Shown one piece after another: positions 1-17,698 of a stretch of DNA of 62,492 nucleotides. The position numbers were made by a program, and so were the translations under genes. Positions within the stretch are counted from its first letter, which is position 1, and each line of letters begins with the position of its first letter. Origin of the DNA: a bacterium (lineage in GTDB: Bacteria > Actinomycetota > Acidimicrobiia > Spongiisociales > Spongiisociaceae); the NCBI GenBank assembly GCA_028820935.1, contig JAPPHZ010000016.1:1-62492 (forward strand), in the 5' to 3' direction. Below the pieces are notes generated by a model, which was not told the origin of the DNA, did not search any database, and saw only the letters and a program-made list of their open reading frames with translations.

Positions 1-107
1 ACCTAAATCAAAGGACCGTCACCCCCCGTACACCACAAGAATGGACTCCACTCTGCGGCATCTCGGGAGACTTCGCGGAGCTCAGCCCGAGACGAACGGC
101 TGATGTG

Positions 108-122
108 TAGGAGACTCTATTG
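108..122 (+). promoter_or_regulatory. Ribosome binding site of the DISARM operon
   Basis: TAGGAG at 108-113 lies 6 nt before a TTG codon at 120. This Shine-Dalgarno match is what decides the non-ATG start of the first drmD segment. I see no convincing -10/-35 pair in bases 1-107, so the promoter may lie to the left of the window. Confidence 0.5.
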
Positions 123-569
123 ACGTCGTCAGAAACGCGGCAGGCACCTGCTGTACCCGAGCAGGGATGCCTCGTTCGTGTTCGTGACCGCTATTGGGTG
201 ATCAAGTTTGTGTTTGAGTCCTCACTTCCGAAGGATCCAGCTCTCTCGGACGATTTGACGAATCACCATTTGGTATCTCTCACTCCAATAGACGATAGAG
301 GTTCGTCTTCTACTTTAAGTGTGTTCTGGGAGACAGAGCCTGGAACTGAGATTCGCCCTCAGGCACAGCTACCTGACCCGGCGTCTGGTACGGACACGCC
401 GGAGACCTTCGCGGCGTTTCTTGACGCTGCCCGGTGGGGCGCAGTGGCCTCGGTGGATCCTTCGGGGTTTCAGTCTCCGTTTCAAGCGGGCATAGACATC
501 GAGGACTACCAGTTGCTTCCCCTGGTCAAGGCGCTACAGATGCCACGAGTGAGGTCTCTTGATAGCTGA
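120..569 (+). CDS. drmD: DrmD N-terminal segment (DISARM class 1 helicase, frameshifted)
   Basis: This 149-codon frame encodes the N-terminal domain that precedes the helicase core in DrmD, the SNF2-like helicase of class 1 DISARM. It ends with the family-typical stretch IEDYQL-PLVKALQMPRV, which in intact homologues runs straight on into the Walker A motif IADDVGLGKT. Here that continuation lies in another frame, starting at 559. Removing one base between about 550 and 560 would rejoin the two, so I read this as the front part of one broken gene and not as a separate protein. The TTG start follows a good Shine-Dalgarno at 108-113. If made alone, this piece would lack every helicase motif. 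Confidence 0.75.
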   Translation: MTSSETRQAPAVPEQGCLVRVRDRYWVIKFVFESSLPKDPALSDDLTNHHLVSLTPIDDRGSSSTLSVFWETEPGTEIRPQAQLPDPASGTDTPETFAAFLDAARWGAVASVDPSGFQSPFQAGIDIEDYQLLPLVKALQMPRVRSLDS

Positions 570-3327
570 TGACGTAGGTTTAGGTAAGACAGTTGAGGCA
601 GGACTGATCGCTCAGGAGTTGGTACTGCGTAACCAGGTCCAGAAGATCCTTGTTGTGTGCCCACCGAGTCTGTGCTTGAAGTGGAAGAGGGAGATGGCCG
701 AGCAGTTCGGGCTCCGCTTCGAGGTGGTGGACACTGAGTATGTCCGCCGGTTGAGGCGGGAACGGGGTGTCGGGATCAACCCGTTCCGGTCGCATCCGCG
801 CCTCATCGTGTCGATGGAGTGGGTCAAGTTCGAGTCTCAGATGCGCTGGTTTGACGAGTTCTTGCCACCGGATCCCAACACCTTCCCGCGAGCGTTCGAT
901 CTGCTGATCGTCGATGAGGCCCATCGGATCGCCCCTTCCGCGGTGGGCCGCTACGCCCGCGAGTCAATGCGTACGAAAGCCATCAAGCGCCTTACTCCGC
1001 ACTTCGAGCATCGGCTGTTTCTCACGGCCACACCGCACAATGGGTATAGGGAGTCTTTCCAAGCACTGCTTGAGATGCTTGACCCGAACCGGTTCACTAA
1101 AGGCGTTGCGCCAAAGCGATCGGAACGCGACGCCGTGATCGTCCGTCGGCTGAAGACGCACCTCCGGAGCTTGCTGCCTGATGGAAGCAAGCGATTCCCC
1201 GAACGGAGGATCCACTCGATCGACGTGGTCTTCCCCCGTCAGGAAAGAGAGCTGTTCGAACTGCTGGACAGCTACACCGCGTTGCGGATGGGATCAGCCG
1301 CTACTCGTGGCGAGCGGGCAGCGTCACGGTTCGTGACACTCCTCCTAAGGAAGCGTCTCCTGTCTTCGCCTGCGGCTTTCAAGCACACCCTTGAGCAGCA
1401 CATCCGGACTCTCGACGCTGCCGCGCACCGACGGACTACGAGTCGGGCCCTTGAGCAGGCGGTGGCAGCGTTGGAAGATAACCCGGACGATTCCGCCGAC
1501 GTGTCCGAGTACGAGAAAGAAGCTTTGGCGCTGGCCGGGGCGACTATTGCCAGAACTGTCGACCGGGGAGGCCTACTCCCGGGAACGGAGAAGCCGCACC
1601 CGGCGGCAAGTACCGATCAAGCCACCGCAATCCTCGCCCGAATGCGAGCACGCGCCGAAGCCACATGGCGGAGAGCTGACGCAAAGACCAAGAAGCTGCT
1701 CGACTGGATCGCCAAGACCTGTTTCCCTGACGGCCACTGGAACGACGAGCGGGTGGTGGTTTTCACGGAGTACCGCGCCACCCTCAACTATCTCGAGGAG
1801 ATCCTCACCGCTCGGCGTAGGCAATGGCCCGCTATGCGGGGGCGAATTGAGGTGTTCCATGGAGGTCTCGAAACCGAGGAGCGGGAGCGGATCATCCGGG
1901 AATTCAATTACAACCCCCGCAAGACGAGGGTTCGGGTTCTGCTCGCTACAGACGCGGCCGCAGAGGGGATTGATCTTCACCGGGCGTGTCATCGGCTGGT
2001 GCATATCGAAGTGCCGTTCAATCCGAACCGGATGGAGCAGAGAAACGGCCGGGTTGACCGGCACGGCCAGAAGTCTCCTACGGTCGACATATTCCATTTC
2101 GCCGCCTCAGGCGCCGTCGACGATGACCCCGTTGGCTACGACCACTCCTTTCTGCTGCGCCTGGCACAAAAGGTCAACGACATCCGCGATGACCTAGGCG
2201 TCGTCTCATCAGTGCTGGCTGAGCGCGTTGAGGCTCGCATGCTGCGCCTTGGTGACCACAAACTCGACGTCGATGATCTGATCGAACTAAAGCGCGACCA
2301 GGCGAGAGTCGACCTGGAACGCCTCAAACGGCAGTTCTCGGCTGAGATCGGCAACGTTCGTCGCCTGTACAGAGGGAGCGTGGCACAGCTAGATCTAGCC
2401 CCTGGCAACGTTCTGCGAGCCGTTCAGGTGGCCTTGCGTATCGAGAGTCAGCCTCCGCTGCGGGAGACGTCCTTGCAGAGAGCCGACGGCCCCGTACCGG
2501 TACTCGAGGTGGGCGATCTCAGTGGCACATGGGGTGAGACGCTGGTGGGCCTGCACAATGAGGTTGAGAACTTCAGGCTCCCGGTCACGTTCGACCCGGC
2601 TGTGGCATCCGGGCATGATGACGTCGCCTACCTTCATGTGGGTCACCCGTTCGTTGCTCGTTGCCTCCGCGTGTTGCGAGCCCAGGTGTGGGGAGCGGCG
2701 GTCGAGCGGAAGATCAACCGGGCCGCCGTGCGATTCGCAGAGATCGACGATCCGGTAGTCGTAGCACATGGCCGCGTTGTGGTGAATGGCGCTGATGGTT
2801 CCACTCTTGACGAGGTCATAGAGCCAGCAGCAGTCCGAGTAGGTGGCCGCCAACGGCGCCTAAATGTTGGACAGACTCGCGCAGCCTTGGCCTCAGCGAG
2901 TACACGATCGGTCCCGGACTACATTCGGGACCGGTATGTGGATCAGTGGCAACGGATCCGGCAGCCTCTTGAGCGGGCCTTACGGGTCCGGGCTGAGGAG
3001 ATCCGCGAGCAGCGGGGCCGGGCGATCGATGCCAAGCGCGAGGCTGAAGAGCGGCGTCTAAGGGGGACACTGGAGGATCTCAAATCGAGCATCCAGCGTC
3101 GTCTAGATGAGCTAGAGCGCTCGGACAGCACGGAGCAGTTGCGCCTGTTCGATACTGAAGAACGCAGGCAGTTCGACGCCGACGTCTGCGCTCTCCGGGA
3201 TCGTGTCGGCCGGATCGACACTGATATTGACACGGAGATTGGCACTCTGCGTCGCCGTTATGCCGTGCGGGATGTCAACTGGTTTCCGGTAGCGGTGGAG
3301 TTCTTAGTCCCGATGGGGAAGAACTAG
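559..3327 (+). CDS. drmD: DrmD helicase core, SNF2-like (DISARM class 1, frameshifted)
   Basis: The 922-codon frame carries the superfamily 2 helicase core of DrmD. Walker A DDVGLGKT is at residues 4-11, DEAH at 119-122, TATP at 156-159, and the motif VI region RNGRVDRHGQ with its arginine finger at 495-504. A long charged helical C-terminus (about 790-920) is probably coiled coil. In DISARM, DrmD acts with the methylase, DrmA, DrmB and DrmC to restrict phage DNA. The frame begins with TTG inside the end of the preceding drmD segment (11-nt overlap), almost immediately before Walker A. It is therefore most likely the rear of a frameshifted gene, although coupled reinitiation at the TTG would give a near-complete helicase core. 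The stop TAG overlaps the GTG start of drmMI by 1 nt. Confidence 0.88.
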   Translation: MIADDVGLGKTVEAGLIAQELVLRNQVQKILVVCPPSLCLKWKREMAEQFGLRFEVVDTEYVRRLRRERGVGINPFRSHPRLIVSMEWVKFESQMRWFDEFLPPDPNTFPRAFDLLIVDEAHRIAPSAVGRYARESMRTKAIKRLTPHFEHRLFLTATPHNGYRESFQALLEMLDPNRFTKGVAPKRSERDAVIVRRLKTHLRSLLPDGSKRFPERRIHSIDVVFPRQERELFELLDSYTALRMGSAATRGERAASRFVTLLLRKRLLSSPAAFKHTLEQHIRTLDAAAHRRTTSRALEQAVAALEDNPDDSADVSEYEKEALALAGATIARTVDRGGLLPGTEKPHPAASTDQATAILARMRARAEATWRRADAKTKKLLDWIAKTCFPDGHWNDERVVVFTEYRATLNYLEEILTARRRQWPAMRGRIEVFHGGLETEERERIIREFNYNPRKTRVRVLLATDAAAEGIDLHRACHRLVHIEVPFNPNRMEQRNGRVDRHGQKSPTVDIFHFAASGAVDDDPVGYDHSFLLRLAQKVNDIRDDLGVVSSVLAERVEARMLRLGDHKLDVDDLIELKRDQARVDLERLKRQFSAEIGNVRRLYRGSVAQLDLAPGNVLRAVQVALRIESQPPLRETSLQRADGPVPVLEVGDLSGTWGETLVGLHNEVENFRLPVTFDPAVASGHDDVAYLHVGHPFVARCLRVLRAQVWGAAVERKINRAAVRFAEIDDPVVVAHGRVVVNGADGSTLDEVIEPAAVRVGGRQRRLNVGQTRAALASASTRSVPDYIRDRYVDQWQRIRQPLERALRVRAEEIREQRGRAIDAKREAEERRLRGTLEDLKSSIQRRLDELERSDSTEQLRLFDTEERRQFDADVCALRDRVGRIDTDIDTEIGTLRRRYAVRDVNWFPVAVEFLVPMGKN

Positions 3328-6300
3328 TGTCGACCAGCCGCCGCGTTGTGCAACAGCACGAGGACTGGCTGAACCTTGCTGACGCGGAGGATCCGTGGTT
3401 CGCGCTGCCCGCCCTCAGGCGTGCATTCCCGAATGGTCTGGATCCCACGCCAACCGAAGTGCGCGCGGAGCACAAGGCCCGCTGGTACGGCGACGAAGAT
3501 GAGGAGTCGGCCCGACTTGCCGACGACCGCACGAACTACATCGAGTGGCTGCTGAAGGAGGTGCTCGACTGGGGGAACGACTACCTGTCAGGCTCGGCTT
3601 TGCCTGCCGCACTCGCGGACGGAGTCACACGATACGACGTGACCGTCGTCGCCTCCGGCGTCTACCAGCCGACGGTGGTACCTCCAGTAGGAATCTTGGG
3701 CGCCCCGACCGATGGCAACGGCCTCACACAGCGGCCGCGCGTGCTGGTCTTCTATCTGCCAGCCGGAACCGACCCGCGTGCGCGACCTGCGGGTGACAGC
3801 TGGTCCGCGACATGGGTGCAACGCGCGGCGCTCTCCTGCAGGGCTCACCGGGTGCCCCTGGCACTCGTAACCGACGGCGACCACCTCACTCTCGTCCACG
3901 CGCGGGAGAGAGAAGCCACCGGCTGGGGCACATGGAGGGCGTCAGAGTTCGCAACGGAGCCTGTGCATCTGAACTCGTTCCGCTCCATGCTGCACGAGAG
4001 GCGGTTTGTCGCCGTTCCGGACTCGGATACACCTGAATCACTCCTGGTGGAGTCAGCAGCTGCGCAGCACGAGGTCACCGACCAGCTTGGTTCCCAGGTG
4101 CGAAGGGCTACCGAATTGCTGGTCAACGCAGTGTCGCGGGCCAACCTAGAACGGAATGGCACACTTCTGGCCGGCGTCGAACCTCACGAGGTATACGAAG
4201 CCGCGGTGACCGTGATGATGCGCATCGTGTTTCTCCTCGTGGCCGAAGAAAACGGTCTGCTGCCCGTAGACAACCCTCACTATCAGAGTCTCTACTCGAT
4301 CCGAACTCTGCGTGAGACGTTGCAACAGGAACGGTTCGCCAACCCCGAGGCTCTTGAAACCCGCACGACGGCCTGGCACCGGCTGCTGGCCACCAGTCGG
4401 GCCACGCACGGCGGTGTCCACCACAACGAACTTACGGTGCCAGCCTACGGGGGAAGCCTTTTTGACCCCGACCGGTTCCCGTTCCTGGAAGGCCGCTCGG
4501 CTCGTAGTAGCTGGAAGGTGACCGCGGGCACACCGATCGGCGTCACCGATCTCGATGTGCTGGCCATGCTCGACGCTCTATTAGTGCTCCGTTTCAGAAC
4601 CGGTAGGGCTGGCACAGACACCCGCCGCCTGTCATACCGGAATGTCGACGTTGAACAGATAGGTCATATCTATGAACGTCTACTTGACCACGACGCGGTA
4701 CGAGCCAACCATGTTGTGCTCGGCCTCACAGGCAAACCAGGTGAAGAGCCCGAGATCGGGCTACCCGAACTCGATGCCAAGCTGATCGACGGCAAAGAGC
4801 CGTTAGTCGCGTGGATCAGTGGAACGCAAGCAGCCAAGGCTGGCCGAAAAGTTGGCACACCAAAGCAGGTAAGGAAACTTCTAGAGGCACCGATCGATCC
4901 ACGGCGTCGAGCGAGTCTGATCCAAGCCTGCCAAGGTGACGAGCAGTTGGCCAGACGACTACAGCCGTTCGCGAACCTACTACGACTCGACCTCCGGGAC
5001 CGACCCCTCGTTTTCCTACCTGGATCCGTATATGTGACCGAGACCGGCTCCCGACGCGATAGCGGGACGGCCTATACCACGAAGGAACTGGCGGACGAAC
5101 TCGTCGAGCACACCCTCGCTCCGCTGTGCTATTCGCCAGGTCCTCAAGACACATCCGACACGAGACACTGGCGGATCAGATCCTCGACGAACATCCTCGA
5201 CCTCAAGGTTTGCGACCCTGCGGTCGGGTCGGGAGCCATCCTCGTGGCCGCCTGCCGATATCTGGCCGACCGTCTCATCGAGGCCTGGAAGTCAGAGGGC
5301 GATCCTCGGGCTACTGACACCGTCACCGCAGCGGACGACCCGAACCGGCTTGATGTCGTGGTTGAAGCCCGCCGCCAGGTTGCGGAGCGCTGCTGCTACG
5401 GCGTCGACCGCAACCCCATGGCCGCAGAAATGACCAAACTATCGATGTGGCTCACCACCGTGGCCAAAGAGCGACCCTTTACGTTCTTGGACCACGCCAT
5501 CAAGTCCGGTGACAGCCTCTTGGGAATCTACGACCTCGACCAACTCCGCTACCTCCATTTCGACATCGGAGCCGGGAGAAGGCGGCCCACCCCGATTCCG
5601 GGCTTTTCGCCGGGAGGCGACGCCGTCCGAGCTGTTGACCGCCTCGTCGACAAAGCGTTAGACATGCGACAGGAAATGCACAGCATTGAAACGATCGGCC
5701 CAGCCGATGTTGAACGCAAACAGAAACTTCACTACGACAGCGAAGGCCGCCTGTCCACGTTGGTGGCCATAGCCGACGTGCTCACCGGTGCCGCTCTGAA
5801 CGCAGCAGGAGAAAACGATCCCAAGAAGGCAATGACCCGTCGGATAGAAGGCGACGCCGGAGTCATCGTGGAATTCGTTGGCGCTCTCGGTACCTCCGCG
5901 GAGAACCAGGCCCTGCGTCGTGTCCACGATCGAGCTCAGGCAAGTATGGAACACGGACGGCCCGACCGTGCTCCGGTCCGTAGCCCGTTCCACTGGCCGA
6001 TCGAGTTCCCCGAAGTCTTCAACAGACCCCCGTCTAGGACCTCCGGGTTTGACGCTATTGTCGGGAACCCACCATTCATGGGCGGTCAGAAGATCACGGG
6101 TACAGCCGGTGTCGACTACCGAAACCATCTCATCGCCTGGATCGCAGGCGGAACGAGAGGATCGGCTGACCTCGTTGCCTACTTCTTCCTGAACGCGACC
6201 CGAGTAGCCCGATCCTTCGGTCTGCTTGCCACCAACACCATCGGACAGGGCGACGCCAGCCAGGTAGGTCTTACGCGGATAGTCGATGCAGGATGGACCA

Positions 6301-7163
6301 TCCACCGAGCTGTCTCATCGGTAAGGTGGCCCGGCGACGCTACGTTGGAGATTGCCAAAGTTTGGGGGACCGTCCACCCTTGGGACAGCGAGCCGCTCCT
6401 GGACCAGCGGCCGGTCATCGGCATAGACGAGATGCTCTACCCTCATTCACGGTCGGGGTGGCGTAAACAGCGCCTCGCCGCCAACGCCGACAGATCTTTT
6501 ATTGGCTCCTATGTTCTCGGAATGGGATTCACCATGAGCCCCGAGAAGGCAGAAGCCCTCATCGACATGAATCCCCGCAACGCCGACGTGCTGGCACCTT
6601 ACCTAGGAGGCAAGGACCTCAACCAGTCGCCGAGTCATACGGCTCCGCGATGGATTATCAACTTCTTCGACTGGCCGGAATACCGAGCCCGCCGATACCC
6701 CGACTGCTTCTCGATCGTCGAAGACAAGGTCAAACCTGAGCGGCAGGAACGCAAGCCAAACGGCGAGTTCAAGAAGCGAAAGCCGTTACCTCAGCTCTAC
6801 TGGATCTATGCGGAGAAACGTCCGAAGCTCTACCGCACGATCAAGCCGCTCAACAGGGTCTTAGCCCTATGCCAAACAAGCAAGGTCCAGCTACCGGCGT
6901 TTGTACCGACAGGACAGGTGCTCGCGCATAAGTTGGTGGTCTTTAGCCTTGACGACTACTTTTGTTCGGCGTTCTTTCGTCGGGTCTTCACTGGCGATGG
7001 GTGCTCCGGCACGGGAGTTCGATGCGAAACGACCCCGTATATACCCCATCCGATGTGTTCGAGACGTTCCCACAGCCGCCGCATAGCGACAGAGTCACGT
7101 CTGCTGGCGATAGGTTGGATACGCATCGTTCCCGTCTCATGGTCGAGCACAACTTGGGGCTGA
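3327..7163 (+). CDS. drmMI: DrmMI adenine-specific DNA methyltransferase (DISARM class 1, frameshifted near its C-terminus)
   Basis: This is the N6-adenine methyltransferase of class 1 DISARM, which marks host DNA so that it is spared. The frame has 1278 codons. Methylase motif I DPAVGSG (S-adenosylmethionine binding) is at residues 630-636 and the catalytic NPPF motif IV is at 914-917, with target-recognition sequence after it. The last ~65 residues lose all family resemblance after VVFSLDDYF at about base 6960. The expected C-terminus (SSGLHWRWVLRHGSS, then YTPSDVFETFP) appears in the frame starting at 6962. One extra base in the run of four T at about 6960-6963 would restore it. The GTG start at 3327 overlaps the drmD stop. 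Confidence 0.88.
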   Translation: MSTSRRVVQQHEDWLNLADAEDPWFALPALRRAFPNGLDPTPTEVRAEHKARWYGDEDEESARLADDRTNYIEWLLKEVLDWGNDYLSGSALPAALADGVTRYDVTVVASGVYQPTVVPPVGILGAPTDGNGLTQRPRVLVFYLPAGTDPRARPAGDSWSATWVQRAALSCRAHRVPLALVTDGDHLTLVHAREREATGWGTWRASEFATEPVHLNSFRSMLHERRFVAVPDSDTPESLLVESAAAQHEVTDQLGSQVRRATELLVNAVSRANLERNGTLLAGVEPHEVYEAAVTVMMRIVFLLVAEENGLLPVDNPHYQSLYSIRTLRETLQQERFANPEALETRTTAWHRLLATSRATHGGVHHNELTVPAYGGSLFDPDRFPFLEGRSARSSWKVTAGTPIGVTDLDVLAMLDALLVLRFRTGRAGTDTRRLSYRNVDVEQIGHIYERLLDHDAVRANHVVLGLTGKPGEEPEIGLPELDAKLIDGKEPLVAWISGTQAAKAGRKVGTPKQVRKLLEAPIDPRRRASLIQACQGDEQLARRLQPFANLLRLDLRDRPLVFLPGSVYVTETGSRRDSGTAYTTKELADELVEHTLAPLCYSPGPQDTSDTRHWRIRSSTNILDLKVCDPAVGSGAILVAACRYLADRLIEAWKSEGDPRATDTVTAADDPNRLDVVVEARRQVAERCCYGVDRNPMAAEMTKLSMWLTTVAKERPFTFLDHAIKSGDSLLGIYDLDQLRYLHFDIGAGRRRPTPIPGFSPGGDAVRAVDRLVDKALDMRQEMHSIETIGPADVERKQKLHYDSEGRLSTLVAIADVLTGAALNAAGENDPKKAMTRRIEGDAGVIVEFVGALGTSAENQALRRVHDRAQASMEHGRPDRAPVRSPFHWPIEFPEVFNRPPSRTSGFDAIVGNPPFMGGQKITGTAGVDYRNHLIAWIAGGTRGSADLVAYFFLNATRVARSFGLLATNTIGQGDASQVGLTRIVDAGWTIHRAVSSVRWPGDATLEIAKVWGTVHPWDSEPLLDQRPVIGIDEMLYPHSRSGWRKQRLAANADRSFIGSYVLGMGFTMSPEKAEALIDMNPRNADVLAPYLGGKDLNQSPSHTAPRWIINFFDWPEYRARRYPDCFSIVEDKVKPERQERKPNGEFKKRKPLPQLYWIYAEKRPKLYRTIKPLNRVLALCQTSKVQLPAFVPTGQVLAHKLVVFSLDDYFCSAFFRRVFTGDGCSGTGVRCETTPYIPHPMCSRRSHSRRIATESRLLAIGWIRIVPVSWSSTTWG

Positions 7164-7501
7164 CCGACGTTTATAACCTGGTACATAACCGCTACGGACG
7201 CTCCGACGCTGCTATTCGACAGGTCCGGGACCTGCACGTGGAGTTGGATGTGGCGGTGCGCGACGCGTATGGGTGGTCGGATCTGGACCTGGGACATGGT
7301 TTCTATCAGGTGCGGGGACAGGGAGATCGGTTCACTTTCTCGCCGGAGGCTGGTGATGAAGTGCTGGACCGCTTGTTGGAGTTGAACAAGGTCCGGTACG
7401 AAGCGGAGGTTGCTGCCGGGTTGCATGAATCCGCTAAGGAGGTTTCGGTCACCACGACTCAGCTTGCGAATCAGGGTTCGTTGCTATGGGGTGGGCGGTG
7501 A
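6962..7501 (+). pseudogene. drmMI: DrmMI C-terminal segment in a shifted frame
   Basis: This segment holds the conserved C-terminus of the methyltransferase: the LHWRWVLRHGSS block and YTPSDVFETFPQP, which typifies this methylase family, followed by a helical tail of about 130 residues. It has no credible Shine-Dalgarno of its own, so I treat it as the displaced end of drmMI and not as an independent gene. It ends TGA at 7499-7501, overlapping the start of drmA. The overlap pattern of the operon is therefore preserved, which argues that the gene was intact recently or that the shift is a sequencing artefact. Confidence 0.75.
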
Positions 7502-10500
7502 CCGGCCAGGTTCAGGGCGCGGTGCCGACTCCTTGGGATCTGCGTACGGACCTGGTTGGGAGGGTCACAGCCGATCTGTTAGGCCCTCTCGACGGTGACA
7601 ACGAAGTCCTCCTGGGTTATCGGATGCGTAACGGACGCTGGTCGTCACCGGGACGGGTACGCGATCGGTACTTGGTTGGGATGCTGGCCCCGAAGGGAAC
7701 GGTCGCACTGGATCCCGAACGCGACGACGATGTTGGACCGGAGGACGGCGATGGCCCTGAGAGAAGTGTTCAGGATGGCCGTAGTCCAAGGCTGGTTCTG
7801 TCGCAGTCGTCAATGGGCTTATCCGTTGTAGTTGCCGACACGGTCGATGTGCTAGTGGCGCGGTGTCGCTGGGGTCATTATCTGCGGGAGTTCCACACTC
7901 AGGCGGATGGGTCCCGAGCTCCGGTGTGGGTTCGACATCCCAGAACGGTCGACGTGGTCGTGCCTTTGGCCGCTGGCGAGTTCGGACCGCTGGCTGTCAA
8001 CGGAGAAGGGATCGTACTGCGGGGCCGGATCACTGCTTCGGGGAACGGACCGTGGCTGGTGACGGTGTTCTTGTCGAACGAACAGACCCAGGTTGAGCGC
8101 AACAAGGACAGCCGCTGGATGTTCCAGGCTGGTTTCTCCCTGTCTGCCGCCGACGGTTCTGATGCCTTCCTGGGCCGCGACCAGGTTCTGACGGGTTCCG
8201 TGGCTGTTCCAGATTGGGAACGGGTCGAAGTTGCCCAGTTAGACATGCAGTATCGCGACGTCGTGGAGTTTGGCGTAGGGCACGGGGTTGGGATCGAGGT
8301 GGAGGTGTCTGCCACAGATCCGCGCCGTGCGGTTCGTGTCGGAACGGCCATCATTCCGAAGTATGAGGTATGGCGCACCGACGCCCCTCATACGGGTGCG
8401 GTTCCTCAACTGTCGGGTCTGGTCACAGACATGAAGTTGCTGTCTGAGCTCGGACCCAAGGAACTCCGGACAGCTCTTGCGCCCTTGACTGCCGGTTACA
8501 GAACTTGGCTCGACGAAGAGCTCGCCCGTGTTGGTGATCCCGCTACCAGGCTTGAGGGACACGAGGAGACTGCCCGCCTTACAGTCTCTGAAGCCAAACG
8601 GGTGGCCGATGCGGTAGCCGACGGGATCGACCTGGTGTGCACAGACCCGGATGCCTTGGACGCGTTCCGGTTCGCCAACCAATCCATGTGGCGCCAGCGT
8701 ATCCACACTGTTGCTATCGACGCTCGCCGCCACGACCCCGAACTGAGCCTGTACGAGGCGGTCACCGCATCTGACTGGCCTGCTAACCGATCATGGCGAC
8801 CGTTCCAACTGGCGTTTGTCCTGTTGTGTATCCCGTCGCTGACCGACCCCGCTCATCCGGAGCGAAACGACAGGGACGCCTTGGCTGATCTGCTGTTCTT
8901 TCCGACTGGCGGTGGCAAGACTGAGGCTTATCTCGGGCTGGTGGCATACACACTCGCCATCCGGCGGATGCAGGGTGTGGTAGGAGATGGCGAGGACGCC
9001 GTTGACGGCCGAGACGGTGTGGCCGTACTAATGCGTTACACCCTGCGGCTGCTGACCGCCCAGCAGTTCCAGCGGGCAGCGACTCTCATGTGCTCAGCGG
9101 AGTTGTGGCGCCAACATCGCGCCAAACGCGACGTGCGCTATGCGGGTGCGCCGTTCCGACTCGGTATGTGGGTTGGAGGTTCAGTTTCGCCCAACAAGGC
9201 CGCGGACGCGAAAAAGTTCGCCGAGGATGCCAAGCAAGGGGGCTTCGGTGGCGGTCAGGCGACACCAGTCCAGTTAACTGATTGTCCCTGGTGCGGACGG
9301 CAGATCGACCCCAAGACAGACAGCCGCTTCGACCCCGTACTTGAGCGATTCCTGCTGTTCTGCGGAGATAAGGAGTGCTCATTCACGGAGCGGAAGACCA
9401 ACGGCGAGGGCATCCCTGTTGTGACTGTGGACGAGGAGATTTATAGGCTTGTTCCGTCGTTCGTGATCGCCACAATTGACAAGTTTGCTCAGCTCCCCTG
9501 GAATGGAGCAACCTCAACGCTGTTCGGACGCGTGGTGTCCCGCTGTGAGCGCCACGGATACCGCAACCCGGACCTCGACCAGTCACATCAGTATCAGTGG
9601 AAAGAACGTGACTCCCATCAGCGGCGCCACTCGCATCCCCCTGCCAGCACCGTGCCTACTGTTCGGCTGCGGCCGCCTGATCTGATTATCCAAGACGAGA
9701 TGCATCTGGTCACCGGACCGTTGGGCACTATGGCAGGCCTCTACGAAACCGCGATAGACAGGCTTTCTTCCTGGACTTACAACGGACAGCTCGTCCGCCC
9801 GAAGGTTGTCGCGTCGACTGCTACGACCCGCAGGGCTCGCGAGCAGGCTTGGTCGGTGTTCTGGAGGAACCTCCGGATCTTCCCGCCGCCGGTCCTCGAC
9901 GTGGGCAGATCGTTCTTTGCTGAGCAGGTACTGCCGGGTCCCCAAACGCCGGGACGCCTCTATATGGGGATATGTGCCCACGGCGAGCGACTGAAGCAAG
10001 TGGAGTTGAGGGTGTTCGCATCTGTTATGGCTGCAGCTAAGGCGATCTGGGACGAACTCGGCTCCGAAGGTGTGAGGGCAGACCCGTGGATGACCACCGT
10101 GGGGTACTTCAACGCGGTGAGGGAACTCGCCGGCATGCGCCGTATGGCCGAAGATGAGCTTCGCACAAAGTTACGCAGAACCAGATTCACCGAGGGCCTC
10201 GCGAACCGCCCGTCCGTTGAACTCAAGGAGCTGACCTCACGGGTGTCCGCTGATGACATCAAGACAATCCTGCGCCAGCTGTTCGTAACCCACGAACCCG
10301 AACCATCGGAGCCCCAGACCGGCAAAGACAAGGACTCGGAACCGCGCGAACGACCGGTCGATCTGCTACTGGCGACCAACATGATCTCGGTCGGTGTGGA
10401 CGTTCCACGTCTCGCGTCGATGATCGTCGTCGGCCAACCCAAGGCCACAGCGGAGTACATCCAGGCTACATCGAGGGTCGGCCGCGATCCTAAAGGGCCG

Positions 10501-11142
10501 GGACTCGTAATCACCCTTTACAACTGGGCTCGGCCACGCGACCTATCACACTATGAGACATTCGTCCACTACCACGCCACCTTCTACCGACATGTCGAGC
10601 CTCTGTCGGTCACGCCGTTCTCCCAGCGGGCCCTCGATAAGGGCCTCACCGGTGTGTTGGTATCCGCGGTGCGCCACAGCCATGGCGACTGGAACCCGAA
10701 CCCTTCGGCTAGAGAACTCAGCCGGCCGGACCAGCGAATAGCCTCAGATGTCCAAGCGATCGCGGAACGTGCCAGTTCGGTCACTGGCGACCTATCGACC
10801 AAAGATCTGGTAACCGCGATGGCAAACAAACGTCTTGATGCATGGGATCGGGAGACCCAACTACGTCAACACCTGTCTTACGCCAAGCGCACGGCCACCG
10901 ACGTGGCCCTACTCTTGAAGCCGGAAACGGGCGACTGGGACATGTGGACCTGTCCGAACTCTCTGCGTGACACCGAAGTGCAAGCGAATCTGCAGATCAG
11001 CGAACACGACCCCTCGTACGAGTCCCTCAGCCAACCACCGATCATTCTCGGTCAACCTGCCAGCTTGTTGCGACCGGTCACCGCCGCCGATGACGACATC
11101 CGAGAAGCGGTCGAAGCGGACGAGGCCGCCACCACCACATGA
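7486..11142 (+). CDS. drmA: DrmA helicase (DISARM core)
   Basis: This is the large DISARM core helicase, 1218 codons from ATG 7486. A GTG at 7498, overlapping the upstream stop by 4 nt after a GGGGTGG stretch, is an equally good start. Walker A FFPTGGGKT is at residues 471-479. The Walker B-like segment IIQDEMHL is near 734-741. The motif VI segment ATSRVGRD lies around 995-1001 and is preceded by LLLATNMISVGVD. Cysteines 600, 603, 626 and 631 form a likely zinc ribbon between the helicase lobes. DrmA and DrmB form the core complex that loads on phage DNA. Reading frame and motifs are intact, unlike drmD and drmMI. The TGA overlaps the drmB ATG by 4 nt. Confidence 0.93.
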   Translation: MGWAVTGQVQGAVPTPWDLRTDLVGRVTADLLGPLDGDNEVLLGYRMRNGRWSSPGRVRDRYLVGMLAPKGTVALDPERDDDVGPEDGDGPERSVQDGRSPRLVLSQSSMGLSVVVADTVDVLVARCRWGHYLREFHTQADGSRAPVWVRHPRTVDVVVPLAAGEFGPLAVNGEGIVLRGRITASGNGPWLVTVFLSNEQTQVERNKDSRWMFQAGFSLSAADGSDAFLGRDQVLTGSVAVPDWERVEVAQLDMQYRDVVEFGVGHGVGIEVEVSATDPRRAVRVGTAIIPKYEVWRTDAPHTGAVPQLSGLVTDMKLLSELGPKELRTALAPLTAGYRTWLDEELARVGDPATRLEGHEETARLTVSEAKRVADAVADGIDLVCTDPDALDAFRFANQSMWRQRIHTVAIDARRHDPELSLYEAVTASDWPANRSWRPFQLAFVLLCIPSLTDPAHPERNDRDALADLLFFPTGGGKTEAYLGLVAYTLAIRRMQGVVGDGEDAVDGRDGVAVLMRYTLRLLTAQQFQRAATLMCSAELWRQHRAKRDVRYAGAPFRLGMWVGGSVSPNKAADAKKFAEDAKQGGFGGGQATPVQLTDCPWCGRQIDPKTDSRFDPVLERFLLFCGDKECSFTERKTNGEGIPVVTVDEEIYRLVPSFVIATIDKFAQLPWNGATSTLFGRVVSRCERHGYRNPDLDQSHQYQWKERDSHQRRHSHPPASTVPTVRLRPPDLIIQDEMHLVTGPLGTMAGLYETAIDRLSSWTYNGQLVRPKVVASTATTRRAREQAWSVFWRNLRIFPPPVLDVGRSFFAEQVLPGPQTPGRLYMGICAHGERLKQVELRVFASVMAAAKAIWDELGSEGVRADPWMTTVGYFNAVRELAGMRRMAEDELRTKLRRTRFTEGLANRPSVELKELTSRVSADDIKTILRQLFVTHEPEPSEPQTGKDKDSEPRERPVDLLLATNMISVGVDVPRLASMIVVGQPKATAEYIQATSRVGRDPKGPGLVITLYNWARPRDLSHYETFVHYHATFYRHVEPLSVTPFSQRALDKGLTGVLVSAVRHSHGDWNPNPSARELSRPDQRIASDVQAIAERASSVTGDLSTKDLVTAMANKRLDAWDRETQLRQHLSYAKRTATDVALLLKPETGDWDMWTCPNSLRDTEVQANLQISEHDPSYESLSQPPIILGQPASLLRPVTAADDDIREAVEADEAATTT

Positions 11143-12995
11143 GCCCCACTAGGTCAAGGAACACCTACAAGTCACGACGGGTCGGTGGCGTCCGCCCGTC
11201 ACAGATGATCCACACATACGGCCCCGGGGCGGTGATCGACCTGCCACGGCTGTCGGTCATCCTCGCTGGCACCGATACCTGGGACATCAATTTCACGGAG
11301 CGGATCCTCGAACCCCGACTGGTCAGGTCCGTAAAGACGATTCCCGGCTGTAACCAGGTTGCTGAGTTCCGTACTCCTCCGTGGGAGGAAGAAACCGCGA
11401 ACGCGTTCGACGATTGGGCCCGCATCGGCGTCCCGGTCTACCCATTCCCCCGATGGCTGCGCTGTACCCGCTGCGACCTGCTGTCGACGGTTGATAGTCG
11501 TCTCTTCGAACTCAACGTCCCCGTGTATCGACCTGACTGGGCCCGCTACTACCACGACAAGTGCTACGGCCGCCGTCCCACCGCGGTACCCGCCCGCTTC
11601 CTCATTGCTTGCCCGGCTGGCCACCTAGACGACTTTCCCTGGGAGGAGTATGCGCATGGTGGTAAGCCATGTCCGGACGGTCCAATCCTTGAACTCAAGG
11701 AGGTCGGGAAGGCCAGCCGAGCCACAGACGTGCGGGTCGTGTGTAAGACCTGCGATGCCACCCGGATTGCACAGGATGCGTTCGGCCTAGACGCCGACAA
11801 GCACCTCCCGCGTTGCCGGGGTCGGCACCCACACCTACATCGCTTCGATACCGCCTGTGAGGAACCCACCAGAGCGCTGCTACTCGGCGCGTCTAATGGC
11901 TGGTTCTCCGTCTACCGGTCCGCTCTATCGATCCCCACCGTGACGGGTGAGATCGAACAGAAAGTCGCAGAACACTGGGACCACCTCGAGGACATCGAAG
12001 AACGCGGCGAGTTGGCATTCATACTCAAGAGGCTCATGAAGGGTGCAGGAGAGAGACCGCTCCGATGGCTGCTTCGCTACGACCCAGATGATGTATGGAC
12101 AGCCATCGTCGACCGGCGCACCAGCGGCGAACCCGGTGCCGGACCCGAGGACCTGCGCGGTCCCGAATGGGCCGCATTCACTGCCGCGGTGCCTCCACAG
12201 TCCGACGACTTTGAGGTACAAACGCTCGATATCCCTGACGGGTTCAGGGTCACGCTCGACCATCCAGTTGCCGTCAGACGGCTCAGAGAAGTCCTAGCCC
12301 TGTGCGGGTTTACACGTATTGATGGACCCGATGCATCGCACCCACACCGGATCGCACCCATCTGGAAGGAGCCTCAGTCCTGGCTACCCGCCGCCGAAGT
12401 CCGAGGCGAAGGAATACTGATCCGGCTTCCGGAAACGCGAGTCGAACAGTGGGAGGCAAGCTATCGGACCACCGAGCGGTATGAGTACCTACGCCAAGCT
12501 GTCCGTAACTGGCGCACCCGCCGAGGACTCGACCCCGATGGAGGACTACCGCCCGCCCGGTTCATACTGCTACACACGCTGTCGCACATGCTGATTCACC
12601 AGGTCGCTCTCGAGTGCGGATACTCCACCGCATCGATAAGGGAGCGCCTATACAGCCGAGAATCAGGTAGCCCTACGGGCCCGCCAATGGCCGGCGTTCT
12701 CCTGTACACGGCCTCCCCCGACTCTGAAGGTACGCTCGGGGGCCTTGTCGCTCTTACAGCACCCAATCGGCTCGCCTCGGTACTGAGAGAAGCGAGAACC
12801 CGGGCCAGGCTGTGTTCTACTGATCCCATGTGCGCAGATCACCACGCCGGCGACCTAGGCGACACTCTCCACAACGCCGCTTGCCATGCCTGTCTCTTCG
12901 CTCCCGAGACGTCCTGTGAAGCCGGCAACCGCCACCTCGACCGAGCAGCCGTCGTCCCCATCCTCGGCCAGCAAACAGGCAGCTACTTCACATGA
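11139..12995 (+). CDS. drmB: DrmB, DUF1998-domain protein (DISARM core)
   Basis: This is a 618-residue protein with a C-terminal DUF1998 region: LHTLSHMLIHQ, then GVLLYTASPDSEGTLGGL, then a Cys/His cluster (C-DHH...CHAC...C). This arrangement is the hallmark of DrmB, the partner of DrmA. Further CxxC pairs near the N-terminus (CTRC, CKTC) and CPAGHLDDFPW suggest more metal binding. There are no ATPase motifs, as expected for DrmB. The ATG overlaps the drmA stop by 4 nt (ATGA), and the end overlaps drmC in the same way, so the three genes are translationally coupled. The frame is uninterrupted. Confidence 0.93.
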   Translation: MSPTRSRNTYKSRRVGGVRPSQMIHTYGPGAVIDLPRLSVILAGTDTWDINFTERILEPRLVRSVKTIPGCNQVAEFRTPPWEEETANAFDDWARIGVPVYPFPRWLRCTRCDLLSTVDSRLFELNVPVYRPDWARYYHDKCYGRRPTAVPARFLIACPAGHLDDFPWEEYAHGGKPCPDGPILELKEVGKASRATDVRVVCKTCDATRIAQDAFGLDADKHLPRCRGRHPHLHRFDTACEEPTRALLLGASNGWFSVYRSALSIPTVTGEIEQKVAEHWDHLEDIEERGELAFILKRLMKGAGERPLRWLLRYDPDDVWTAIVDRRTSGEPGAGPEDLRGPEWAAFTAAVPPQSDDFEVQTLDIPDGFRVTLDHPVAVRRLREVLALCGFTRIDGPDASHPHRIAPIWKEPQSWLPAAEVRGEGILIRLPETRVEQWEASYRTTERYEYLRQAVRNWRTRRGLDPDGGLPPARFILLHTLSHMLIHQVALECGYSTASIRERLYSRESGSPTGPPMAGVLLYTASPDSEGTLGGLVALTAPNRLASVLREARTRARLCSTDPMCADHHAGDLGDTLHNAACHACLFAPETSCEAGNRHLDRAAVVPILGQQTGSYFT

Positions 12996-13774
12996 CCGAT
13001 CAGCTGACCCGAGCGACGGTCCAAGCTGCTATTCACGTCCCCGCGGAGCTCCTGGCCGCCGGAGCTGTAGCAGTGGCCAACAGGCCCCGTTGGTCACCCA
13101 AATCACAGGATTTGTTAGTCACCGCGAACCCCGCCGCTAACTACCGTGAGCATGCCCGAGCCATCGGACATGCATGGTCACATACCCCGGATGTCTCCGG
13201 AGCCGCGGTCGCGGCTGCCATGCGGGCCGCAGCCAAGACTGCCAAGGCGGTAAGGACCGAGTACAGCACCAGCCTGGTCTGGACTGGACCCACTACCGAA
13301 GCCCTGGGCCTACGATCCACACGATCCGTTCTCAACGCACTCGTGGCCAACGCCACCGAAAGCCTCATACTGGTGTCCTTCGCCACCCACAACGTCGGTG
13401 ATCTGACAACGGACCTCTCCAACGCTGCAGCGAGGGGAGTCGAGGTGACCATCATTCTCGAGACGCCGGACGATCCCGGCGGTCCGCTCGATATCGGACC
13501 AACACACCCACTTGCGCCCCTCAGGGGCACCGCCACTTTCTACCGGTGGCCCGACGAAACCCGCCGAGCGCACTTCGCAACAACCGCCCGCCTCCACGCG
13601 AAGTGCGTCATCGCCGACCGTACATCCGCGCTCATCACCAGCGCGAATCTGACCAGCGCCGGGATTAACGACAACATCGAACTCGGCATCTTCATCGAAG
13701 CAGGGCCGCTTCCGGGGCAACTCGCCCATCACATCCGACTACTAATTGAGCAAGGAACTCTCGACGTTTCGTAG
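12992..13774 (+). CDS. drmC: DrmC, phospholipase D-fold protein (DISARM)
   Basis: This 260-residue protein has a single C-terminal HKD motif, LHAKCVIADRTSALITSANLT, which is the phospholipase D/nuclease superfamily active site. This is the structure of DrmC, the last gene of the DISARM operon and the one reported to be dispensable for defence. The N-terminal ~100 residues are Ala-rich and helical. One HKD per chain means the active site would form in a dimer. The start overlaps the drmB stop by 4 nt. Nothing terminator-like is obvious after the TAG. Confidence 0.9.
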   Translation: MTDQLTRATVQAAIHVPAELLAAGAVAVANRPRWSPKSQDLLVTANPAANYREHARAIGHAWSHTPDVSGAAVAAAMRAAAKTAKAVRTEYSTSLVWTGPTTEALGLRSTRSVLNALVANATESLILVSFATHNVGDLTTDLSNAAARGVEVTIILETPDDPGGPLDIGPTHPLAPLRGTATFYRWPDETRRAHFATTARLHAKCVIADRTSALITSANLTSAGINDNIELGIFIEAGPLPGQLAHHIRLLIEQGTLDVS

Positions 13775-13992: not shown

Positions 13993-15147
13993 TTACTTAC
14001 AGGAAGTATCGCTGTTGCTACCACCTGATAATAGTACTGCCGAAAGGTCGTCACGCCAAGTTATGAACTCATACTTACTAGGCTCTACCTTATGCAGAGC
14101 GTTGGACATACGTCTTAGAACAGGTCGTAGAGTACTACTCAGGCGATAGTTGTTGGCTAGAATCTCCCTGAGTCGCGCGATCTGATCTATTCCCGTTTCT
14201 CCATTCTTGGCTAACTCAACTAGGTTTTTGAGCAGGCCGTGAGCAGCTTCAATATTGTCCTCTGTCTTTGCATCACGAATTAGCTCTGTAAGTACATTGA
14301 TTCCGCTCCCGACGCGCGCGAGCTGATCTACATAATCGTCTGTTACGTTCTCCATTTCAGATATCGGTTTCTCTAGGCGCTTCGCAAGACGTCGAATAAC
14401 TAGAACCCGCGCCGCCCCTGGATTTGGTACCGTGCTCTTGGCCTGTAGCTCACTTGTGGCCATAGTTGTGACTTCGGCAGTTTCATGAAGAAGATCTGTG
14501 AGTGCACGTATTGCTGTATTGAATAGTGGGATAGCCTCTTCAGCTTCGGCAAGGAGCTCCATTAATCCTGGAGGGTCATCGGAGATGTCGTCAGCAGACA
14601 GATTGTCGAGCGGGGCCTCTGCTTCAGATGTGAGAACAGCCTTGAAAGCACTCACGATGTCTTCTGCTAACTTAGCAATCGCCTTCCGTACACTGTTAGA
14701 ATTCATGTCTTCAAAGCGCAGATCCCCCCATCTGAAGTATTGTCGTTTTGCAAGTTCCACGGCGACCTCGTCGTGAGGATTGTCAAGCCCTGGTGTCCGC
14801 ATATATAGGATAGGGATGATTAGGTCATTGCGGTCTAATGACTGCTCACCCTCTAGAAATACGAGAACCTCTTCTCGGCACAATTTGCTCTTTAGGAAGG
14901 AAGGTGTGATTATTGTTATAAGCAGCGTAGAACCGTCCAAGGATTCGCCAATTCGCGCTCGCCATTGCTGTCCATAAAAGATATCACGTCGGTCATGAAA
15001 GATCTTGAAGGGTACGCCCATTTGCATATGAACTTCTGCTTCTAGACGACGCCTTAACTCAGTGATCCGGCCGTCTTCGTAGTCATCGTCTTGTTGTGCG
15101 TAACTCAGAAACGCACCAAAGCGAGCATCTCGCCCATTTTGTGACAT
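13993..15147 (-). CDS. TIR-domain protein, probable defence effector
   Basis: The N-terminal ~150 residues form a TIR domain of the bacterial TIR_2 type. FLSYAQQDDD is at 13-22, followed by FHDRRDIFYGQQW and then ITPSFLKSKLCREE at about 80-93. The C-x-x-E spacing makes Glu93 the likely NAD-cleaving catalytic residue. The remaining ~230 residues are helical and unrecognised, possibly a sensor or oligomerisation part. Bacterial TIR proteins usually kill infected cells by depleting NAD or make a signalling nucleotide. The gene is markedly richer in A+T than DISARM, suggesting separate acquisition. ATG 15147 is preferred over an adjacent in-frame GTG (15150), because TAGACT sits exactly 6 nt upstream of the ATG, as in a leaderless mRNA. 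No partner gene directly adjoins it. Confidence 0.85.
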   Translation of the reverse strand: MSQNGRDARFGAFLSYAQQDDDYEDGRITELRRRLEAEVHMQMGVPFKIFHDRRDIFYGQQWRARIGESLDGSTLLITIITPSFLKSKLCREEVLVFLEGEQSLDRNDLIIPILYMRTPGLDNPHDEVAVELAKRQYFRWGDLRFEDMNSNSVRKAIAKLAEDIVSAFKAVLTSEAEAPLDNLSADDISDDPPGLMELLAEAEEAIPLFNTAIRALTDLLHETAEVTTMATSELQAKSTVPNPGAARVLVIRRLAKRLEKPISEMENVTDDYVDQLARVGSGINVLTELIRDAKTEDNIEAAHGLLKNLVELAKNGETGIDQIARLREILANNYRLSSTLRPVLRRMSNALHKVEPSKYEFITWRDDLSAVLLSGGSNSDTSCK

Positions 15148-15153
15148 CACATG

Positions 15154-15889: not shown

Positions 15890-17698
15890 CTAATCCCGCA
15901 GAGCGCAGGTCTCAAGGTCAACCACCAGACGCAAGATTTGAAGGCTGCGCGGGTCGGCAGGCTCGGTGAGTCCCGCTTCTCGCAGGGCGTTGGCGAAGAA
16001 GTCGGATGTGTCAATCTGGGTCGTAGCGGGAAGGGAGATGTGAATGTCCGCCAAGCGGCGCAGATAGCCGTCGGCTTTGAACTGGGGGCCGTAAACAGTC
16101 CGCACCACCTCACACAACTCCCCGCGGTTGACACCGACTATCACCACAACCCGTTCGACGGCAAAGAGGTGGTGGATGTCTGCCAAGGCTTCGAGGGCGT
16201 AGCTAGGGGGGCAGCGGTCTAGTTCGTCAATAATCAACACCAGTCGTCCGTGTCCGGCTGCTGCTGACTCCAAAGATTGGCGAATCGAGGTGGCAGCCCG
16301 CCGTTGTTCCCTCCATGAGTCGTAACGGGGATCTGGCACCGCGCCCCGCAGAGCGGTCGCCAGGCGGGTCCTCGCCGCGGCGAGGTGACCTGCGCCGGGG
16401 TCGGTGATACCTTCCGAAAGAGCGCCGAGCAGGTCGAGGGCCGGCCGCTGTGTGTGCTGCGCCGCCCAAGCGTCGAACTCGATGACGGTCTCTCCCCGGC
16501 TCCGCAGATCGGCTGCGCACATCCGCAAGAAGGCCGTCTTGCCAGACCCCCAGCCCCCATCGACCATCACGGTCGCCGGCCCAGCCAGTGTCACGACCCT
16601 GTCGGTGAGTCCTACGACGTGTGATCTACGGCCCAGCAGATCCTTGGCGAATGGGTCCGCGGGGTCCGGGTCAAACGCTGGTGGCCGGATGCTCCGACTC
16701 CCCATTGGTGCGGTGCCGTCTGACTGAGTCTCCGCTTCTTGATTTCCCCTTACGTAAACCTTGAGTAATACGTCAGGTATACCCTGACCTTGAGCATGGA
16801 CCACTGCCCCGCCCGCAGCTAACCCGAGAAACACCCGTGCGATCATGAACTCCAGAATGTGCGACGTCGTGAGCGTCCAGGAGAACACGGCAAGGTCGGC
16901 CCACGGGGTGAACACGAACGACATCGCCAAGGCCCGGAGCGCTACCTTCCAGCCCGCTGCTGGCTCACCGTTGGGAGCCGACACGACCCGACCCCAAGGG
17001 TGCCAAATCTCAAACGCGATAGCACCCACACAGAAGAGTGCAGCGAAGATCCGGAGGACAGCTACGACCGGCAGACCGACACCTGCAACGGCAACCGCCG
17101 CTTCGATGACCAGCAACCATCCGACACCCCAGAAGGCTGTGACCGCTACGGCCCGCCATCCAACGCGGCGGCTCAGACTCCGGAAGGGAACATCCGGGCC
17201 GAGTCTCCGCGGAGCGACCAAGGTGGTTAGCAGTTGAACGGATCCAACAAGCACCGCTCCCACCCCGGCAGCAAGGTACTTCGGGGTGCCCGAGTAGCTC
17301 AGGCGAAACGGATTCTGCCACCGGCCTACCCCCAGAATCTGCAAGTCGCACGTAACGAGACAAAGAGCTTGACCCTCTTCGACCGTCAGGTAAGCGAGAG
17401 TAAAGGCCACCGTTGCCAGGGCCACCAGAAAGAACAAGGCAACCACCAAGAACGTGCGCTCTTCGCGGTCAGGCCCGAACCGAGCAACCCGTCTCGGGAG
17501 GTCCGCCCCGTACCCGAACCCGAACACGATGACGAACCCAATAGGCACGAGAGCAGCGACCAACGCCTCCCGCGCTTCTGACGCAGGACGCCCATCGACG
17601 AAGACAAGAGCAATAAAGCCGCCCAGCACCGCCAAGCCATAAAGGCTCAGGAAGTTCTTGTACCCACGCAAGCCGAAAGTCGATGTGGGGCGTGCCAT
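15890..17698 (-). CDS. Membrane KAP-type P-loop NTPase (truncated by amber codon)
   Basis: The first ~310 of 602 residues carry about seven hydrophobic segments (for example near 15-36, 43-62, 82-103 and 140-165), so the protein sits in the membrane with a cytoplasmic NTPase. Walker A GGWGSGKT ends at Lys387/Thr388. Walker B LIIDELDR has Asp491-Arg495, followed by VERVVVIVGVNR, the arrangement of the KAP family (related to proteins that exclude phage or handle membrane complexes). KAP NTPases are common in defence islands. The frame ends LETCALRD-TAG, and the same frame continues open for 174 more codons, so the intact protein was probably about 777 residues. The ATG at 17698 has GGAG about 5 nt upstream. 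Confidence 0.8.
   Translation of the reverse strand: MARPTSTFGLRGYKNFLSLYGLAVLGGFIALVFVDGRPASEAREALVAALVPIGFVIVFGFGYGADLPRRVARFGPDREERTFLVVALFFLVALATVAFTLAYLTVEEGQALCLVTCDLQILGVGRWQNPFRLSYSGTPKYLAAGVGAVLVGSVQLLTTLVAPRRLGPDVPFRSLSRRVGWRAVAVTAFWGVGWLLVIEAAVAVAGVGLPVVAVLRIFAALFCVGAIAFEIWHPWGRVVSAPNGEPAAGWKVALRALAMSFVFTPWADLAVFSWTLTTSHILEFMIARVFLGLAAGGAVVHAQGQGIPDVLLKVYVRGNQEAETQSDGTAPMGSRSIRPPAFDPDPADPFAKDLLGRRSHVVGLTDRVVTLAGPATVMVDGGWGSGKTAFLRMCAADLRSRGETVIEFDAWAAQHTQRPALDLLGALSEGITDPGAGHLAAARTRLATALRGAVPDPRYDSWREQRRAATSIRQSLESAAAGHGRLVLIIDELDRCPPSYALEALADIHHLFAVERVVVIVGVNRGELCEVVRTVYGPQFKADGYLRRLADIHISLPATTQIDTSDFFANALREAGLTEPADPRSLQILRLVVDLETCALRD

What the first reader, a model, noticed from the sequence alone, without database searches (positions are those of the whole stretch)
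541..575. drmD is split by a frameshift a few codons before its Walker A motif
The N-terminal frame ends QMPRVRSLDS-stop, while the family continuation I-ADDVGLGKT is in the frame starting at 559. One extra base around 550-560 explains it. The result separates the N-terminal domain from a complete helicase core that has its own TTG start overlapping the stop. It could be decay, a sequencing error, recoding, or deliberate two-polypeptide expression.
Basis: partly seen in the sequence, partly recalled or inferred. Interest (0 to 1): 0.6.

Follow-up and report, generated by a model that had tools for sequence, protein, structure and literature searches.

The report
Frameshifted drmD in a DISARM operon
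A known anti-phage defence gene (drmD of a class 1 DISARM operon) is cut in two by one surplus base that no relative shares, and the neighbouring methylase gene is broken too, so this is most likely a defence operon that recently lost function (or a local assembly error), not a new kind of gene arrangement.

Summary
drmD's N-terminal frame (120-569) stops at TGA 567-569 and its continuation (559-3327) lies in another frame. The pieces match adjacent stretches of one DrmD profile (4-140 and 142-1035). All 14 relatives found in public genomes (38-76% identity) and 12 further full-length DrmD genes from the phylum read through this point in one frame, so the split is private to this genome.

A second private frame break, not mentioned in the finding, lies 6.4 kb downstream in drmMI (about 6950-6965). 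drmA, drmB and drmC are open. Four relatives carry different lesions in drmD or drmMI. Elsewhere in this genome, 984 kb of sampled DNA gave no confirmed frame break, so a generally poor assembly is unlikely. Conserved residues are kept in both broken genes, so the lesions are very recent or artefactual.

Nothing supports recoding: no conserved site, repeat tract or unusual RNA fold. Two-polypeptide expression is unlikely because the cut falls inside the first RecA-like fold, between motif Q and Walker A. Without reads, a local assembly error cannot be excluded; the contig begins 120 bases upstream of drmD. Ordinary finding, low interest.

The parts
120..569 (+). drmD, N-terminal piece (149 aa, TTG start), including the motif-Q-like segment (DIEDYQLLPLVKAL); ends at TGA 567-569
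551..558 (+). interval that holds one base more than all relatives (site of the frame break)
551..561 (+). GAGG (551-554), 4-nt spacer, TTG (559-561): possible weak re-initiation site
   Evidence: read from the sequence; relatives
559..3327 (+). drmD, C-terminal piece (922 aa) with Walker A, DEAH, TATPH and the C-terminal helicase motifs intact
3327..7163 (+). drmMI, N-terminal piece; family match ends at about residue 1212 (base 6962), followed by out-of-frame residues to the stop
6950..6965 (+). second frame break, in drmMI: one base fewer than relatives
6962..7501 (+). drmMI, C-terminal continuation in another frame (profile 1170-1330 of 1347)
7486..11142 (+). drmA, open
11139..12995 (+). 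drmB (DUF1998/MZB), open
12992..13774 (+). drmC (PLD domain), open

Best explanation
This is a class 1 DISARM operon (drmD-drmMI-drmA-drmB-drmC) that has recently begun to decay. A private surplus base in drmD stops translation just before the Walker A motif. A private one-base deficit in drmMI cuts off its last 175 or so residues, after the methylase core. Shown: both breaks, their absence from relatives, open drmABC, no sign of relaxed selection, and independent lesions in drmD or drmMI of relatives. Inferred: that the bases are real and not assembly errors; that the operon no longer gives full protection; that losing drmD helped the cell tolerate a damaged methylase (host methylation is reported to hold DISARM down), or that the two were lost in the reverse order.
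For: All 14 relatives read through the junction in one frame, as do 12 other full-length DrmD genes in a draw of 396 phylum genomes. A second private break lies in drmMI. Independent lesions exist in relatives: L044 drmD frameshift plus a drmMI-drmA deletion, L040 drmD frameshift, L032 drmMI frameshift, L038 drmMI deletion of about 230 codons on a 3.27-Mb contig. DrmA is broken only by the L044 deletion among 25 distinct genomes with a match. A frame-break detector with 66% recall (74/112) gave 31 candidates in 984 kb of this genome; of the 15 strongest, 11 are clearly two different genes, 4 undecided and none shown to be a broken gene. drmD core and drmMI of the window are no more changed at conserved sites than those of sister lineages: 22/481 and 25/562 against 3-23 and 12-35, so the breaks are recent.
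Against: No reads, so each break rests on one consensus. drmD lies at the very start of its contig, where assembly stopped at a dispersed repeat. Absence of relaxed selection is equally what a sequencing error would give. The detector missed both breaks here, so its near-zero count elsewhere is only a bound.
Confidence: 0.6

Rival explanations
1. Local assembly or sequencing error: the real gene is intact and the consensus is wrong at one base (and perhaps also in drmMI).
For: The break is 550 bases from a contig end, beside a dispersed repeat; coding constraint is retained on both sides; the drmMI break lies beside a run of four T.
Against: No confirmed frame break among the 15 strongest candidates of 984 kb of the same assembly; two errors within 6.4 kb would be unusual in such an assembly; the drmD site has no homopolymer longer than two.
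Confidence: 0.3
2. Two-polypeptide expression: the ribosome stops at 567-569 and re-starts at the overlapping TTG 559, so the N-terminal and helicase pieces are made separately and reassemble.
For: TTG 559 overlaps the stop region by 11 nt, with GAGG 4 nt upstream; the 922-aa frame keeps all helicase motifs from Walker A onward.
Against: No relative is split here. The cut lies inside the first RecA-like domain: homology to a solved SNF2 protein begins at residue 119 of the intact protein, before the cut at about 146 (1z63), and the strand just before Walker A spans the cut in a low-confidence model. Motif Q would be on the other chain.
Confidence: 0.06
3. Programmed +1 frameshifting or phase variation at the site restores full-length DrmD in part of the products or of the cells.
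For: A +1 shift anywhere from the break to the TGA would give a product of the family's length (read from the sequence); L040 has its own drmD break in a run of nine C, which could be slippage-prone.
Against: Relatives have no break here, so no conserved recoding site exists; no repeat tract at the window's site; the RNA around it folds no better than shuffles (z 0.65).
Confidence: 0.04

Closest known systems
Class 1 DISARM (drmD, drmMI, drmA, drmB, drmC)
   Same: All five genes in the usual order, each matching its PADLOC family
   Different: drmD and drmMI are each split by a one-base frame break
DrmD of Acidimicrobiaceae/Acidimicrobiia metagenome bins (L032, L034-L037, L042, L044)
   Same: 71-74% identical helicase core, drmMI next where the contig allows
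   Different: These read through the site in one frame; L044 is broken at a different place
RapA / SNF2 family helicases
   Same: Same helicase motifs (RapA E=2.8e-30)
   Different: RapA is an RNA polymerase recycling factor; only the engine is shared

Membership tests
Class 1 DISARM | drmA helicase, drmB DUF1998 protein, drmC PLD nuclease in one operon | tested here: met
   open frames 7486-11142, 11139-12995, 12992-13774 with DrmA, DrmB, DrmC matches
Class 1 DISARM | drmMI adenine methylase and SNF2-like drmD | tested here: met
   both present by homology, each in two frames
Class 1 DISARM | drmD and drmMI intact (expected of a working system) | tested here: not met
Class 1 DISARM | protects against phage | not testable with these tools
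   needs an experiment
Programmed frameshift gene | shift site conserved among relatives | tested here: not met
   none of 26 relatives has it
Programmed frameshift gene | stimulatory structure or slippery/repeat tract | tested here: not met
Split (two-subunit) gene | separate genes in relatives, cut at a domain boundary | tested here: not met
   single genes; cut inside RecA1 (structure model of low confidence)

The most novel reading that the evidence does not exclude
DISARM in this clade of actinobacteria is repeatedly switched off by mutation in drmD and drmMI while drmA and drmB stay intact (5 of 15 close loci damaged, against 0 of 13 distant ones), so that these two genes act as an evolutionary off-switch; in this window the drmD piece starting at TTG 559 may still be made.
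Probability: 0.1. Interest if true: 0.4.

Novelty: new member of a known kind. Interest (0 to 1): 0.13.

Why it matters
Mostly as a caution: profile matches would still count this locus as DISARM although two of its five genes are broken in the consensus. If the lesions are real, it is one more case of a defence system being lost piecemeal; the repeated damage to drmD and drmMI, but hardly to drmA or drmB, would be worth a proper count.

Tried and rejected
Viral contigs held no relative of drmD, and no second copy of drmD exists in the genome. Nine other genomes of the genus hold no close drmD and do not match this DNA beyond the first 57 bases, so no same-species allele could be compared. The coding-potential detector does not see the two breaks themselves (drmD's N-terminal piece has weak codon signal; recall there 0 of 20), so it serves only as a genome-wide bound. 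RNA fold, repeat and promoter scans at the site gave nothing. The AlphaFold model of an intact relative is of low confidence (mean pLDDT 59) and is used only for the order of strands and helices. The idea that L032 shares the window's drmMI break (suggested) was rejected: its break is about 40 codons upstream.

Full report
Observation. ORF 120-569 ends QMPRVRSLDS-TGA (stop 567-569). ORF 559-3327 begins TTG-ATA-GCT-GAT-GAC and reads IADDVGLGKT. The two match one DrmD profile at positions 4-140 and 142-1035, so they are the two halves of one gene. Compared with relatives, the window has one base more within about 551-558.

Surroundings. The window is the whole of contig C16 of a 3.3-Mb, 51-contig assembly. 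The genes are a class 1 DISARM operon: drmD, drmMI, drmA, drmB, drmC. Close homologues come mainly from metagenome bins of Acidimicrobiaceae and related groups. A second frame break splits drmMI: family similarity runs in one frame to base 6962 and continues in another frame from 6965 to about 7486, with one base fewer than relatives. drmA, drmB and drmC are open.

Is the break shared? No. All 14 relatives from the genome collection read through the drmD junction in a single frame. In a draw of 396 genomes of the phylum, the strict full-length DrmD genes are single open frames of 1052-1186 codons, except the window's own and one (G453) that falls on two contigs. One of them, G411, is the same genome as that of L032 (identical places) and is not counted twice, which leaves 12. 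Hence the split is private, which speaks against both recoding and a conserved two-gene arrangement.

Is it noise of the whole assembly? A simple Viterbi gene finder that allows frame changes was trained on 984 kb of this genome. On simulated one-base indels it recovered 74 of 112. It proposed 31 candidates. Of the 15 strongest, Pfam shows 11 to be two different genes and leaves 4 undecided; none was shown to be a broken gene. The detector misses both breaks in the DISARM operon, so this is a bound and not a clean rate; still, two homology-proven breaks within 6.4 kb stand out. Against this, drmD starts 120 bases from the contig end, and the first 53 or so bases are a dispersed repeat of the genus, where assemblies are least reliable.

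How old? At sites conserved in the other lineages the window differs in 22 of 481 (drmD core) and 25 of 562 (drmMI), within the range of sister lineages (3-23 and 12-35); drmA and drmB behave alike. The N-terminal piece is slightly more diverged: 4 of 73 conserved sites changed, against 0-3. There is no sign of long drift, so the breaks are very recent or artefacts.

Relatives also lose these genes. L044 has a frame break in drmD and a deletion joining drmMI to drmA; L040 has a drmD break in a run of nine C; L032 has a drmMI break at a different place; L038 lacks about 230 codons of drmMI on a 3.27-Mb contig. DrmA is broken only by the L044 deletion, and drmB shows no break in the loci held. 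Damage to drmD or drmMI in 5 of 15 loci (the window and the 14 relatives) against 0 of 13 more distant ones has a one-sided exact probability of 0.03 by my own arithmetic. This is a small sample, chosen afterwards and mostly of metagenome quality; some loci are cut by contig ends.

Could the pieces work? TTG 559 with GAGG four bases upstream could allow re-initiation (inference). But the cut lies within the first RecA-like domain. In the intact protein, similarity to the Sulfolobus SNF2 enzyme (1z63) begins at residue 119 and continues through Walker A. The low-confidence model of an intact relative puts the strand just before Walker A at 146-149, on the cut. The restart product would lack motif Q and part of that strand, so a working helicase is unlikely. 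The RNA around the site folds no better than shuffles, and there is no repeat tract.

Mechanism, shown and inferred. Shown: two breaks, private, recent, in drmD and drmMI, with drmA and drmB open. Inferred: loss of DrmD and truncation of DrmMI disable or weaken the system. The structural study of DrmAB reports that unmethylated DNA stimulates its ATPase and that methylation reduces it, and leaves DrmD's role for future work (PMC9142583). A cell with a damaged methylase but an active DISARM would risk self-targeting, so loss of drmD first, or together, is a reasonable order; this is not tested.

Verdict. A correct observation with an ordinary cause: a recently broken gene in a known defence operon (0.6) or a local assembly error (0.3). 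Recoding or deliberate splitting together get about 0.1.

Noticed in passing
window 6950-6965: Second private frame break, in drmMI (one base fewer than relatives), separating the last 175 or so residues.
   Followed up: yes
window 1-53: Dispersed repeat of this genus (core CACCACAAGAATGGACTCCACT; copies in G007, G004, G006, G008, G002 and own contig C22:5984-6006; an inverted pair in L165). Looks like the end of a small mobile element about 65 bases upstream of the drmD start, and probably why the contig ends here.
   Followed up: partly
L040 about 12343-12353: drmD of a relative is broken at a run of nine C near its 3' end; could be slippage, phase variation or an assembly error.
   Followed up: no
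L044 14755: Deletion joins the 5' part of drmMI to the 3' part of drmA in a relative whose drmD is also frameshifted: a clearly decaying DISARM.
   Followed up: partly
L038 14125: drmMI of a relative on a 3.27-Mb contig lacks about 230 codons and changes frame at the junction.
   Followed up: partly
window 13993-15150 and 15890-17698 (-): A TIR-domain protein and a KAP-family NTPase on the opposite strand beside DISARM; possibly a further defence module.
   Followed up: no
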